A stretch of DNA of 64,000 bases, taken from contig NZ_WBWE01000002.1 in NCBI RefSeq assembly GCF_008932435.1, forward strand, positions 186,001 to 250,000, in the 5' to 3' direction. A program made the translations under genes and the position numbers. The DNA is from Brucella pseudintermedia (GTDB lineage Bacteria > Pseudomonadota > Alphaproteobacteria > Rhizobiales > Rhizobiaceae). The notes under the pieces were generated by a model. It searched no databases. It was not told the DNA's origin and saw nothing but the letters and a program-made list of their open reading frames with translations. Below are positions 41,635-62,729 of the stretch, piece by piece (the first letter of the stretch is position 1; each line of letters starts with the position of its first letter).

Positions 41635-41683
41635 AACCGGCTCCTGCTCCGGGCATCCCCGCCCGTGACAATGGACAACACTA

Positions 41684-41889
41684 GACGGCAGGTCTCCTGG
41701 CTCACGAATATCTGCTGTTCATCTGCCTTCCCGCGCTTCTCCGGCGCAGTGGCATGACGCTTTCAACGCCACGAGGATGAACGGCAATCCGCTTACAGTT
41801 GCGGGGGCAGCCACGGTCTTGGCCCCTTTTCGGGTCGTCCTCACCGTGTTCCCTATTAATCCCCTTCGCTCTCGGTCGGGGAACCGTCG
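41684..41889 (-). promoter_or_regulatory. Cobalamin (B12) riboswitch
   Basis: On the minus strand the element reads, in order: GGTTCCCC, AATAGGGAACACGGTG, GACCGTGGCTGCCCCCGCAA (core), CTGTAAGCGG, a TGCCACTG box, GGGAAGGC and the closing GAGCCAGGAGACCTGCC. These are the conserved blocks of the class I cobalamin riboswitch in the right order and spacing. It lies about 200 bases upstream of the FecCD-type ABC operon and should shut off its expression when adenosylcobalamin is abundant. Confidence 0.95.
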
Positions 41890-42124
41890 TTATACTATTA
41901 CGTCGGCCCGCGCTCGCCGTCAAGCAGGTCTCGACGCCTATTTCCGGCGTGCGGTTTTCAAGAATTCCGAAAGCGTTTCCCATAAAACTGCAGCCAATTT
42001 ATTATCGCATCTGCTGGCCTATTGAATTTGTTTTCGCTAATCTCCATTTAGTTTGCTCCCGCTAGGAGAGCGGGACTTGGGGAGGTCCGCCGAAGGGCGG
42101 CTTATATTCCATTTGGGAGGACAT

Positions 42125-58473: not shown

Positions 58474-59886
58474 CTACTGGAAGTCGAAGGCGGAAAGCCC
58501 CGCCACCATCTCGTCCAGCCCCAGCGGGCGCGTCAGCGGTGGTTCGGCGCGGGTGATGCAGCCTTGCCGTTCGCACAGGCGACAGGCCGGACCGATTTCC
58601 GTGTTGCCCGCCTTTGACAGCGAGGCGCCGTAAACCGTGTCGCCCCCCGCCTCCAGCGCGCAGCCAAGCAGCAGCGCCGTGCGGCGCGGGCGCTCGCTGA
58701 ACGCGCCCTGCGGCCCTTCCAGCGTGCGGGCGATAGTCAGGAAAGCGGAGCCATCCGGCAATTCCACCGGCTCAACCAACACCTGACCGGCCTGCGCAAA
58801 AGCCGCATAGACCGGCAGTTTCGGGCACTGCCCGCCGAAGCGAACCGGAAAGCCTTCCGCGCCCGCGACACGCAGCCGGTTACCCGCATGGTCGATTTCC
58901 ATCACGAAGAAGGGCAGCGCGCTTGCGCCCTGCCGCTGCAAGGTCGTGAGCCGGTTTGCCGCCTGCTGGAAAGAAACACCGAAGCGCGTGCGCAGCACAT
59001 CGACATCGTAACGCGCCCGCACCGCCGCATCGCGAAACTGGCGATAGGGCATCATCAAGGCCTGCGCCGCATAACGCGCCAGTTCGAACCGGGCGATGCG
59101 TTTTGCTTCGCCCGATGACAATTTCAGCCCTTCCGTTTCCGCGCCGATCACCACCTGCATGCGGACAAGTGCTGCCTCCATGGCAATTTCCTGCAACTGA
59201 TCGAAAGGCGACAGGCGCTCGGAAATGAAAAGTCGCTGCGAATGCCGGTCATAGCGCCTGCGCCAGTTCGGCATTGTGGCAACCGGCAGCGAACGAACCG
59301 TGATGCCATGCTCGCGGCGCAGCCAGTCCTTCAATGCAGTCGCCAACTCGCCATCCGGCTTGAGCAGCGTGTAAAAGCTCTCGGCCTCTTCCTCGATGCG
59401 CGGATAATGGTTAGGCCGGCGCGCCATCACATCGCGCACTTCATCGAGCGGCAGTCGCGTGGCGGAGAGTTCCGCCCCGCTTCCCTCATGCGAGAGCAAT
59501 TGCGACAGGTCGGACAGGCGCTGCTGTTGCTCTCGATAGGCGCGGTAAAGCTTCATGATGCCGACAGCGGCATTGGGTGCCGCCTCGCCGATTTCGACCA
59601 GTTCCTGATCGCCGGGCAATTCGCCGGTCAGAAGCGGATCGGAAAACACTTCCTTCAGACCCGCGATCGTGGAGCCGCTTTCGGCCTGAAGGCTGTCGAG
59701 GTCGAGCTTATAGACGCTGGCAAGCTTTAAAAGTAGCTGCACCGTCAAGGGCCGCTGGTTGCGCTCGATCAGGTTCAGATAGGATGGCGAGATGCCGAGC
59801 GCCTCAGCCATGGCCGTCTGGGTCAAAGCGCGTTCGTTACGGATGCGCCTGATGCGCGGCCCGGCAAATATCTTGCGTTCGCTCAA
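58474..59886 (-). CDS. ScfR/RamB-like transcriptional regulator (XRE HTH, IrrE-like, DUF2083)
   Basis: 470 residues if started at TTG 59886, preceded by GGGAGGG; an ATG at 59913 would add nine residues. N-terminal XRE HTH (RIRRIRNERALTQTAMAEALGISPSYLNLIERNQRPLT, about residues 7-44), central IrrE-like domain without an evident HExxH, and a C-terminal DUF2083 with the cysteine motif ACRLCERQGC. Relatives (RamB, PccR, MccR) sense acyl-CoA status and control isocitrate lyase, glyoxylate or propionyl-CoA genes. It diverges from aceA, its probable target. Confidence 0.9.
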   Translation of the reverse strand: MSERKIFAGPRIRRIRNERALTQTAMAEALGISPSYLNLIERNQRPLTVQLLLKLASVYKLDLDSLQAESGSTIAGLKEVFSDPLLTGELPGDQELVEIGEAAPNAAVGIMKLYRAYREQQQRLSDLSQLLSHEGSGAELSATRLPLDEVRDVMARRPNHYPRIEEEAESFYTLLKPDGELATALKDWLRREHGITVRSLPVATMPNWRRRYDRHSQRLFISERLSPFDQLQEIAMEAALVRMQVVIGAETEGLKLSSGEAKRIARFELARYAAQALMMPYRQFRDAAVRARYDVDVLRTRFGVSFQQAANRLTTLQRQGASALPFFVMEIDHAGNRLRVAGAEGFPVRFGGQCPKLPVYAAFAQAGQVLVEPVELPDGSAFLTIARTLEGPQGAFSERPRRTALLLGCALEAGGDTVYGASLSKAGNTEIGPACRLCERQGCITRAEPPLTRPLGLDEMVAGLSAFDFQ

Positions 59887-59946
59887 CTCACCCTCCCGAT
59901 CTTTACAACTCATGACAAAGTAGCGGCAAATCCGAACATTGACAAG

Positions 59947-60052
59947 ATTTACAAATTTACAGCGCCACCTGGTCAAAACCTCGACAGGATTACCTCAATT
60001 ATTCGGCGGTTTTGTTAGTTTTTCTGGCCACTATCTAATCGCAATTGTAAAT
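59947..60052. promoter_or_regulatory. Inverted ATTTACAA sites between scfR-like gene and aceA
   Basis: ATTTACAA at 59947-59954 is repeated in inverted form as TTGTAAAT at 60045-60052; the first is followed at once by a second TTTACA (59956-59961). Sites made of short TTTGCAAA/TTTACAAA-like half-sites are known for ScfR-family regulators. Placement near each divergent start suggests regulation of both genes. Confidence 0.45.
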
Positions 60053-60119: not shown

Positions 60120-61409
<1,290 letters not shown>

Positions 61410-61443
61410 CAGTCGAAAGACAAATAAAAGGAGGAACAGTTCC

Positions 61444-61683
61444 ATGAATTCGCCAGCACGCGTCAAGGAAAGAGCAGAAGAACAATCTTCAAGCATGACC
61501 ACGGATCAGCAGACCGTTATCCGCATGCTCGCCAACGATCTGCATCGCCTCAACTACACCGTCATGAAGGCGGTCGAGGCAGGCGTCTCCGTGGAACTGG
61601 TCCGCTCGGCCCGGCATCATGGCGGCGACGGCAACTGGGGCGATCTCTTGATCCCCGTCATCGTCACCAACCAGCAGTCATGA
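61444..61683 (+). CDS. 79-residue protein, founder of a microprotein chain
   Basis: Starts at ATG 61444 behind AAAAGGAGGAACAG, one of the best ribosome sites in the window. The N-terminal 58 residues are predicted helical (TDQQTVIRMLANDLHRLNYTV, then MKAVEAGVSVELVRSA). The C-terminus is GDGNWGDLLIPVIVTNQQS, which recurs in the next two small frames. No family recognised. The stop TGA overlaps the next ATG (TGATG), so translation can continue into the following frame. Probably cotranscribed with aceA. Confidence 0.75.
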   Translation: MNSPARVKERAEEQSSSMTTDQQTVIRMLANDLHRLNYTVMKAVEAGVSVELVRSARHHGGDGNWGDLLIPVIVTNQQS

Positions 61684-61808
61684 TGCCTTCGACTATCGCC
61701 GTCGCCGCCATGTTCATTCATTTTGTGTGCCTTCGGCAGCACGGGGTCGGCGACGGCAACTGGGGCGATCTCTTGATCCCGGTCATCGTCACCAACCAGC
61801 AATCGTGA
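61683..61808 (+). CDS. Microprotein 2 of the chain (41 residues)
   Basis: Starts at the ATG overlapping the previous stop by one base (TGATG); an ATG one codon earlier is also in frame. The product is MPSTIAVAAMFIHFVCLRQHG, a short hydrophobic head, followed by the tail GDGNWGDLLIPVIVTNQQS shared with the first and third frames. Its tail differs from the first by three bases, all synonymous. No ribosome site of its own, so it probably depends on reinitiation. Confidence 0.6.
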   Translation: MPSTIAVAAMFIHFVCLRQHGVGDGNWGDLLIPVIVTNQQS

Positions 61809-61933
61809 TGCTCTCAACCATCGCCGTCGCCGCCATGTTCATTCATTTTGTGTGCCTTCGGCAGCACGGGGGCGGCGACGGCAACTGGGGAGACTTGCTC
61901 ATCCCCGTTATCGTCACCAACCAGCAATCATGA
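61808..61933 (+). CDS. Microprotein 3 of the chain (41 residues)
   Basis: Same build as microprotein 2: TGATG overlap, head MLSTIAVAAMFIHFVCLRQHG and tail GDGNWGDLLIPVIVTNQQS. The tail differs from the first copy at eight bases and from the second at nine, all synonymous, including two leucine codons that differ at two positions each (CTC/TTG and TTG/CTC). This is good evidence that the peptide is translated and constrained. Confidence 0.6.
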   Translation: MLSTIAVAAMFIHFVCLRQHGGGDGNWGDLLIPVIVTNQQS

Positions 61934-62067
61934 TGCCTTCGACCATCGCCGTCGCCGCCATGTTCACACACTTCGGTATTTGGCAGCGACAGAATGTCCG
62001 AACACAAAGTTACGCGATGAACGGACTTGATATACCACTCGTTTTATGGTCGGATTTCCTCAACTGA
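61933..62067 (+). CDS. Microprotein 4, divergent end of the chain (44 residues)
   Basis: Begins at a third TGATG overlap with the same head, MPSTIAVAAMF, but then diverges (THFGIWQRQNVRTQSYAMNG ... LWSDFLN) and lacks the shared tail. The repeat ends inside it. It may be a truncated, non-functional copy or a distinct last product. A strong terminator begins four bases after its stop. Confidence 0.4.
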   Translation: MPSTIAVAAMFTHFGIWQRQNVRTQSYAMNGLDIPLVLWSDFLN

Positions 62068-62070
62068 CCT

Positions 62071-62102
62071 CCCCGGCTGGCCCCGCCAGTCGGGGGTTTT
62101 TT
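62071..62102 (+). terminator. Terminator of the aceA-microprotein unit
   Basis: CCCCGGCTGGC (62071-62081) pairs with GCCAG-T-CGGGG (62085-62095) around CCC, followed by T6. It begins four bases after the last microprotein stop and none is seen between aceA and this point, so all five frames are probably one transcription unit. Confidence 0.9.
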
Positions 62103-62234
62103 AAACCCGGCGTAGGCTTCGGGCTGGCAGCGCCACCGCCGCTGGCCCGTAGGCAATTCTTGACGGAAAATTCATCCAATCCTGACAAAGCCGCGCTTTG
62201 AGCATTGACGCGGGACGGCCCATCGTGATCCTGC

Positions 62235-62312: not shown

Positions 62313-62729
62313 ATGTCAATTCAATCACTCATCGACAGTATCGCCACAAAGATCAACATCGATCCGCAGCTTGCCGAGAAGCTTGCCGGTTCGGTATTTT
62401 CGGTGCTGCAGCACAGCGCTCCGGAAATCGGCAACAAGATTTTCGCGCTCCTGCCGGATGCGCAGCAACTCGCCAGCGCCCACGACGTGCTTGCCAACAG
62501 CACCGGCGGCATCATGGGCGCGCTGTCGGGCCTGATGGACAATGTGGCTGGCGAAAAGATGAGCGCGCTTCTGAAGGCTGCGGCCACGCTTCGCTCGAGC
62601 GGCCTTTCCAGCGACCAGATCACCGAAGCAGGCGGACAGGTGATCAACTATGTGCGCGATCACGACCCGCAACTGATTGACCAACTGGTCGCGAACGTGC
62701 CCGCGCTCAAGGGCCATTTCGGCCTCTGA
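62313..62729 (+). CDS. Hypothetical helical protein
   Basis: 138 residues from ATG 62313 (MSIQSLIDSIATKINIDPQ). No signal peptide or membrane helix. The sequence is mostly helical with a glycine-rich centre (ANSTGGIMGALSGLMDNVAGEKMSALLKAAATLRSSGLS), reminiscent of DUF2780/DUF2267-type proteins, but I do not recognise a firm match. Follows a strong leader hairpin. Not obviously linked to its neighbours. Confidence 0.65.
   Translation: MSIQSLIDSIATKINIDPQLAEKLAGSVFSVLQHSAPEIGNKIFALLPDAQQLASAHDVLANSTGGIMGALSGLMDNVAGEKMSALLKAAATLRSSGLSSDQITEAGGQVINYVRDHDPQLIDQLVANVPALKGHFGL

What the first reader, a model, noticed from the sequence alone, without database searches (positions are those of the whole stretch)
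61444..62067. Translationally chained microprotein cassette behind isocitrate lyase, conserved at the peptide level
Four short frames (79, 41, 41 and 44 residues) follow aceA. Frames 2-4 each begin at a TGATG overlap with the previous stop, repeating every 125 bases. Frames 1-3 end in the identical tail GDGNWGDLLIPVIVTNQQS. Comparing the 20 codons of the tail (61624-61683, 61749-61808, 61874-61933) gives 3, 8 and 9 base differences, and every one is synonymous. Random drift or RNA-level constraint would not give this; selection on a translated peptide would. A strong leader site precedes frame 1 and a strong terminator follows frame 4. I know no described system like this. Possible roles: a regulator of isocitrate lyase, a set of signal or precursor peptides, or a dosage array of one microprotein.
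Basis: partly seen in the sequence, partly recalled or inferred. Interest (0 to 1): 0.85.

Follow-up and report, generated by a model that had tools for sequence, protein, structure and literature searches.

The report
Repeated RNA hairpins behind isocitrate lyase
Behind the isocitrate lyase gene and its known small repressor gene, the end of the repressor gene has been copied several times in a row; the copies look like repeated RNA hairpins that are reshuffled with the gene rather than a set of working mini-proteins, and what they do is not yet known.

Summary
Frame 1 is a known protein, the SMc00767-family acetate metabolism repressor (126.2 bits, cut-off 95). Frames 2-4 do not pass as selected peptides. 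In the genus, new changes in the extra tails run at the neutral ratio, while frame 1 tails are strongly constrained. The heads of the frames show pN/pS 1.35. Two other genera carry the array without coupled starts (0 of 11). The synonymous differences fit reshuffling with frame 1 alleles of other species. What recurs in all three genera is RNA-type structure: a stem pairing each tail start with a sequence just after a stop, and a hairpin with compensatory changes, though few of these are independent. I read it as a tandem array of structured RNA in the 3' part of the aceA-repressor transcript, homogenised by recombination with the gene. Its function (processed small RNAs or mRNA protection) is inferred. 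A neutral self-templating repeat is the main rival.

The parts
60120..61409 (+). aceA, isocitrate lyase (429 aa)
   Evidence: NCBIfam NF011645 768.2 bits, cut-off 562; Pfam ICL
61444..61683 (+). Frame 1: SMc00767-family acetate metabolism repressor (79 aa); its 3' end is the source of the repeats
   Evidence: NF050174.1, 126.2 bits, cut-off 95; strong match (E below 1e-37) in 34 of 35 genomes of the genus, own genome included
61621..61966 (+). Tandem array, period 125, 2.8 copies
   Evidence: RNA fold z -4.39, 0 of 100 shuffles as stable
61621..61632 (+). Arm a of stem P1 (GGCGGCGACGGC), inside frame 1 (codons GGDG)
   Evidence: perfect complement of 61698-61709; pair counts
61698..61709 (+). 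Arm a' (GCCGTCGCCGCC), copy 1, 14 bases after the stop of frame 1; can pair with the tail start before it (P1) or after it (junction hairpin J)
61698..61757 (+). Junction hairpin J, copy 1, spanning the start of tail 2; -30.9 kcal/mol, z -4.24
61725..61742 (+). Hairpin B, copy 1 (GTGTGCC TTC GGCAGCAC)
   Evidence: 98.8% of cells paired, 3 of 7 pairs with changes on both sides
61680..61808 (+). Frame 2 (42 codons from ATG 61680, 41 from ATG 61683); tail copy 2 at 61749-61808
   Evidence: 22.5 bits to NF050174.1, below the cut-off
61805..61933 (+). Frame 3 (GTG 61805 or ATG 61808); tail copy 3 at 61874-61933
   Evidence: 24 bits to NF050174.1, below the cut-off
61823..61882 (+). Junction hairpin J, copy 2, -35.2 kcal/mol, with hairpin B copy 2 at 61850-61867
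61930..62067 (+). Frame 4: spacer of the last unit (arm a' copy 3 at 61948-61959) running into diverged sequence; no tail copy
   Evidence: last frames differ between species
62070..62096 (+). Intrinsic-terminator-like site ending the presumed aceA-repressor-array transcript
   Evidence: 12-pair stem and T run; number of sites in the region not above shuffles

Best explanation
The locus is a two-gene unit (aceA plus the SMc00767-family repressor) whose transcript carries, after the repressor, a tandem array of structured RNA modules. Each module is a copy of the last ~60 bases of the repressor gene, a spacer with the reverse complement of the tail's first ~12 bases, and a short hairpin. The modules arose by tandem duplication of the gene's 3' end and are kept alike by recombination with it, so the extra tails look protein-conserved although they are not selected as peptides (from comparison). 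In the transcript the modules fold into long hairpins (predicted, with some compensatory change). Most likely they act as RNA: cut out of the 3' part of the transcript as small RNAs, or protecting and timing decay of the aceA-repressor mRNA (inferred).
For: Frame 1 is a known family. 17 of 35 genomes of the genus have a full extra unit; the R1 search lists 19 at E<=0.01, two of them weak relics. The array is also in two more genera: 5 of 7 and 3 of 6 genomes; in a family sample, 14 of 394 genomes and 3 of 109 genera (strict filters). In the eight loci of those two genera that were read it lies behind aceA and frame 1. Own frame 1 is the nearest, or tied nearest, frame 1 tail for 24 of 31 extra tails. 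Private changes in the genus's extra tails: 17 nonsynonymous to 1 synonymous, 8 to 1 without one decayed copy; neutral expectation 9.2 to 1, and frame 1 tails 3 to 7. Frame heads (8 codons) pN/pS 1.35. Coupled starts: 16 of 20 in the genus, 0 of 11 outside. Hairpin B: 98.8% of cells paired, covariation 0.283 against 0.174 shuffled. P1: 92.5%, 0.130 against 0.068. J: z below -2 in 19 of 25 genomes, against 0 of 42 frame 1 body stretches.
Against: Independent compensatory changes are few. On the aceA tree two hairpin B pairs show one joint change each, and P1 pair 3-87 changes largely out of step (10 pair-state changes, 7 if fully coupled, 13 if independent); the sign tests seen have too few pairs to reach 0.05. 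Two of five pair measures do not beat shuffles: pairs with a change on both sides (97 and 80 of 500 shuffles as high) and number of pair types (497 and 289 of 500), for hairpin B and P1. P1 slid by -3 scores 0.114 against 0.130. P1 column 3-87 is unpaired in 6 of 23 and 9-81 in 5 of 23. J is not significant in 6 of 25 genomes: all three of g50, G028, and the two g96 genomes with doubled hairpins. Private changes outside the genus are less clear: 4 to 4 in g96, 8 to 1 in g50 with all 8 in one frame-shifted copy. The array is absent in 17 of 34 genus genomes and presence changes at least 13 times on a 42-tip aceA tree, so it is dispensable. No expression data were available. No Rfam family matches.
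Confidence: 0.5

Rival explanations
1. Neutral self-templating repeat: tails and inverted arms duplicate by slippage, unequal exchange and template switching within the palindromes; the matched arms come from one arm templating the other, and the array has no function.
For: Copy number swings between species (0 to 2 extra tails, plus decayed ones) with at least 13 changes of presence on the tree. Some extra tails decay (G020, G202, G372). Hairpin B is itself doubled in G314 and G390. G031 has a short duplication inside the tail. Few independent joint changes.
Against: The same spacer-hairpin sequence persists in three genera. The first unit is 125 bases in 14 of the 17 array genomes of the genus, the other three being 124, 124 and 115. 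J folds better than shuffles in 19 of 25.
Confidence: 0.33
2. One reading: a cassette of translationally coupled microproteins under selection as peptides.
For: Stop/start overlap in 16 of 20 extra tails of the genus; all tail differences in this genome synonymous; extra-tail pN/pS over pairs still low, 0.114, and hairpin codons 0.172. Outside the genus 9 of 11 extra tails have some in-frame start 28-77 bases after the previous stop.
Against: Private changes neutral in the genus; heads pN/pS 1.35; the 20-codon spacer gives 0.69 in the frame of the peptide, 0.55 and 1.29 in the other two, so its frame does not stand out. No coupled in-frame start in G024, G025 and G028, nor for the second extra tail of G008, nor for 11 of 11 outside the genus; tryptophan and glycine lost in some copies, a stop in one. 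17 of 34 genus genomes lack extra tails.
Confidence: 0.07
3. Feedback site: the repressor protein or another RNA-binding protein binds the repeated hairpins in its own message, so that copy number tunes autoregulation.
For: Position directly behind the repressor gene in the loci examined; repeated structured sites.
Against: No evidence that this family binds RNA; no structure model could be run. Frame 1 without any tail copy is widespread in other genera.
Confidence: 0.1

Closest known systems
SMc00767 (Sinorhizobium meliloti) acetate metabolism repressor, NCBIfam NF050174
   Same: Frame 1 is a member by the curated cut-off and lies directly behind aceA. The 2007 J Bacteriol paper on aceA, SMc00767 and glcB is known to me here only from entries in two reference lists; it is not held, and that it describes an aceA operon and repression is recalled.
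   Different: Of 63 loci L054-L116 read, three (L054, L061, L076) show tail copies by the peptide pattern used; frames 2-4 do not reach the family cut-off.
CcaF1-CcsR1-4 locus of Rhodobacter sphaeroides and related CIN1 loci
   Same: A small-protein gene followed, in one transcript with a terminator, by several homologous RNA units (passages of PMC10253847 seen).
   Different: There the small protein is a DUF1127 RNA-binding protein and the RNAs are cut out by RNase E. Here the protein is of another family, the unit contains coding sequence of the gene before it, no CCTCCTCC was found in the array (motif recalled), and nothing is known of processing.
Repeated palindromic elements (REP-type) at 3' ends of bacterial operons (recalled)
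   Same: Tandem hairpins behind a coding region that may slow decay.
   Different: REP elements are scattered over a genome; here hairpin B has 2 exact matches in the own genome, both in the array, and 5 others only with 2-3 mismatches.

Membership tests
SMc00767 family (NF050174.1), frame 1 | Score above the curated cut-off of 95 bits | tested here: met
   126.2 bits, profile 1-66 of 66
SMc00767 family (NF050174.1), frame 1 | Gene directly behind aceA (feature recalled) | tested here: met
   aceA 60120-61409, frame 1 from 61444
SMc00767 family (NF050174.1), frame 1 | Represses acetate metabolism genes | not testable with these tools
   family name only
SMc00767 family (NF050174.1), frames 2 and 3 | Score above the curated cut-off | tested here: not met
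   22.5 and 24 bits, 18 residues of the tail region each
CcsR / CIN1 loci | DUF1127 small protein upstream | tested here: not met
   frame 1: no Pfam family at E<=1; NF050174
CcsR / CIN1 loci | CCUCCUCC loops (motif recalled) | tested here: not met
   no CCTCCTCC in 61401-62110
CcsR / CIN1 loci | Tandem homologous structured units ended by a terminator | tested here: met
   structure and terminator by prediction only
CcsR / CIN1 loci | RNase processing into stable small RNAs | not testable with these tools
   no expression data
Any Rfam family | Covariance model score at the gathering level | tested here: not met
   no match in the array; with relaxed threshold only two sub-threshold matches, K_chan_RES E 0.028 and NsiR1 E 0.4

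The most novel reading that the evidence does not exclude
A previously undescribed RNA module, present in three genera of one family, that is rebuilt again and again from the coding end of a metabolic repressor gene: the gene's last codons serve at once as protein code and as one arm of an RNA hairpin, and tandem copies release small RNAs or set the life of the glyoxylate-shunt transcript, with copy number as a tunable dose.
Probability: 0.3. Interest if true: 0.65.

Novelty: new variant of a known kind. Interest (0 to 1): 0.45.

Why it matters
It shows a trap: tandem copies that exchange with a constrained gene can show only synonymous differences and mimic a selected peptide family. Comparing private changes in the copies with the pool of alleles of the parent gene separates the two. 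If the hairpins work, a short protein tail is under two codes at once and a central carbon-metabolism operon carries a copy-number-variable RNA control element.

Tried and rejected
Peptide cassette: rejected as the main reading. A simple count of private changes alone would mislead, because many synonymous codons already occur in the pool; hence the neutral expectation. Known RNA family: none. Hairpin B as a genome-wide repeat: no, 2 exact places in the own genome, both here. A tree-based sign test of covariation was tried and has too few independent pairs to decide (its output was cut, so not every slid control was seen). Structure prediction of frame 1 was asked for twice and not run. Literature: the listings of searches showed no account of the array; only three papers were opened, for passages, and the one paper listed was not opened; most subscription papers are not in that library. 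The Fisher test of extra tails against frame 1 gives p 0.02 (8:1 against 3:7) or 0.0007 (17:1 against 3:7); the rows are not independent, so these are guides only.

Rows left out before counts: the alignment for model R1 (A3) has 20 of the 24 rows of A2; left out were G020u1 (decayed) and three near-identical units (G019u0, G034u0, G002u1). A4 holds 23 of 25 array genomes; G314 and G390 (doubled hairpin) were left out. In one search two decayed tails (G020, G372) that the pattern had missed were added by hand. In one search, 14 of the 17 array genomes of the genus were used (G024, G025 and G028 left out). The tree is of aceA stretches, not of species.

Full report
What is there. aceA (60120-61409) is followed by frame 1 (61444-61683), then a 125-base tandem repeat (61621-61966) and a terminator-like site (62070-62096; 3 sites found in the region, shuffles give 2.4).

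Frame 1 is known. NCBIfam NF050174.1, 'SMc00767 family acetate metabolism repressor', matches with 126.2 bits (cut-off 95); Pfam has nothing. Strong matches are in 34 of 35 genomes of the genus, own included; the 35th, G010, has only a chance-level hit. Over the 27 proteins, 13 of the 15 positions of GDGNWGDLLIPVIVT are invariant or nearly so.

How the array is distributed. Tail copies were found in 17 of the 34 genus genomes that have frame 1. Model R1 of the spacer-hairpin junction gives 19 of 35 genus genomes at E<=0.01, two of them weak relics (G022, G027), and 14 of 394 genomes of the family, in 3 of 109 genera, with stricter filters. Within the two other genera it is in 5 of 7 and 3 of 6 genomes. 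In the eight loci of those genera that were read it stands behind aceA and frame 1. The first unit is 125 bases in 14 of 17 genus genomes (124, 124 and 115 in the others), and 106-107, 112 and 140-141 outside. On a tree of aceA stretches, presence/absence needs at least 13 changes over 42 tips.

Why not peptides. The tail copies mostly end like the host's own frame 1 (NQQS, HDK, HEK, HEKG, NKQ, HNP), and own frame 1 is the nearest, or tied nearest, frame 1 tail for 24 of 31 extra tails. Some exceptions are telling. The third tail of this genome is nearer to the frame 1 tail of G029 (6 differences) than to its own (8), and the third tail of G008 is 2 from G029 and 8 from its own. All synonymous codons in this genome's extra tails also occur in frame 1 tails of the genus, though the pool is wide enough to make that weak alone. 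Of changes in the extra tails of the genus not seen in any of 34 frame 1 tails, 17 are nonsynonymous and 1 synonymous (8 and 1 without one decayed copy of G020). Random single changes would give 9.2 to 1, and frame 1 tails themselves, left out one at a time, give 3 to 7. That is 0.87 to 1.85 of the neutral value for the extra tails against 0.05 for frame 1. Outside the genus, with small pools, the count is 4 to 4 in g96 (one change a stop, two W to R) and 8 to 1 in g50, all 8 in one frame-shifted copy. Six of the 20 extra tails in the genus carry private nonsynonymous changes, including W to R, W to S and G to R. Pairwise pN/pS over 14 genomes is 0.095 for frame 1's body, 0.045 for its tail, 0.114 for the first extra tail, 0.172 for the hairpin codons and 1.35 for the 8 codons before them; the 20-codon spacer gives 0.69 in the peptide's frame, 0.55 and 1.29 in the others. 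A start overlapping the previous stop exists for 16 of 20 extra tails in the genus and 0 of 11 outside, where 9 of 11 have some in-frame start 28-77 bases later. In G024 and G025 a frame shift separates the coupled frame from the tail. Against this: extra-tail pN/pS is still low and the overlap is common in the genus. I attribute the first to exchange with frame 1. The overlap is also found in 10 of 17 genus-mates without extra tails (frames of at least 24 codons), usually needs only a stop TGA after a codon ending in A, and may be inherited.

What is conserved instead. Each unit holds an arm a (tail start, GGCGGCGACGGC here), an arm a' shortly after the stop (GCCGTCGCCGCC) and hairpin B (GTGTGCC TTC GGCAGCAC). 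Arms a and a' pair over all 12 positions, G-T allowed, in 12 of 25 array genomes and 2 of 17 genus genomes without array; 11 or 12 in 19 of 25 (in G314 and G023 the best register is not the usual one) and 7 of 17. Of 300 shuffles of the downstream bases, 0 to 53 reach the score in those 26 genomes. In loci L054-L116 it is 11 or more in 0 of 63; these include the three array loci of g50, whose arms are shorter, and two loci of the genus. In several genomes where the tail reads GAA the arm reads TTC, and in G022, where it reads AAC, the arm reads GTT; G015 has GAA without TTC. Hairpin B pairs in 98.8% of cells over 23 genomes of three genera, with T-A to C-G and G-C to A-T changes. P1 pairs in 92.5%. 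In covariation score both exceed all 500 shuffles and all slid controls (closest: P1 slid by -3, 0.114 against 0.130), but the tool warns that relatedness alone can do this, and the number of pairs with joint changes and of pair types does not exceed the shuffles. On the aceA tree the joint events are few: one each at two pairs of hairpin B, and 7 pair-state changes at 9-81 where 6 would be full coupling and 10 independence; pair 3-87 does poorly. The whole array folds at z -4.39. In that fold each of the first two a' pairs with the next tail start around hairpin B, and the first tail start pairs with the last a'. This junction hairpin has z below -2 in 19 of 25 genomes, against 0 of 42 equal-length stretches of frame 1's body; all three genomes of g50, G028, G314 and G390 fail.

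Mechanism. Supported by comparison: duplication of the gene's 3' end, exchange with frame 1, near-neutral evolution of the extra tails as protein, and recurrence of the same hairpins in three genera. Predicted: the fold. Inferred: that aceA, frame 1 and array are one transcript (no promoter-like site found, where shuffles give 0.9; terminator-like site only after the array) and that the hairpins act as RNA. The nearest working analogue is the CcaF1-CcsR1-4 operon of Rhodobacter, a small-protein gene followed by four RNAs cut from the transcript (passages of PMC10253847). It is an analogue, not kin: neither the DUF1127 protein nor the recalled CCUCCUCC motif is there. A neutral palindrome-templated repeat remains a serious rival, since template switching can make arms match without selection.

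Verdict. Observation confirmed; frame 1 known; peptide-cassette reading not supported; a reshuffled RNA-hairpin array is the best reading, function open. I saw no description of the array in the listings of searches.

Noticed in passing
L136, L137 (genomes G390, G314), behind frame 1: Hairpin B is itself doubled and shortened (GCATGC TAC GCAATGC, with small differences, twice), giving units of 140-141 bases.
   Followed up: partly
L025 (genome G031), end of frame 1: A short direct duplication inside the tail extends frame 1 to 92 residues; another sign of slippage at this spot.
   Followed up: no
genomes G020 and G032 (L008, L028): aceA stretches nearly identical (branch lengths 0.0034 and 0.0007) but frame 1 and array state differ strongly, which suggests a recombination border between aceA and frame 1.
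   Followed up: no
genome G010 (3.3 Mb, same genus): The only genus-mate of 35 without a strong frame 1 match; an aceA search there also found nothing. Absence, gap or masking cannot be told apart here.
   Followed up: partly
window 58474-59976 (-): Divergent regulator with HTH, IrrE-like peptidase and ScfR domains; resembles RamB (301 bits) but below that family's cut-off of 700.
   Followed up: no
window 62313-62729 and L054 downstream of the array: The small gene after the terminator looks alike by eye behind the array in Paramesorhizobium, so synteny seems to extend past the array.
   Followed up: no
window 41670-41903 (-): Cobalamin riboswitch, 110.2 bits.
   Followed up: no
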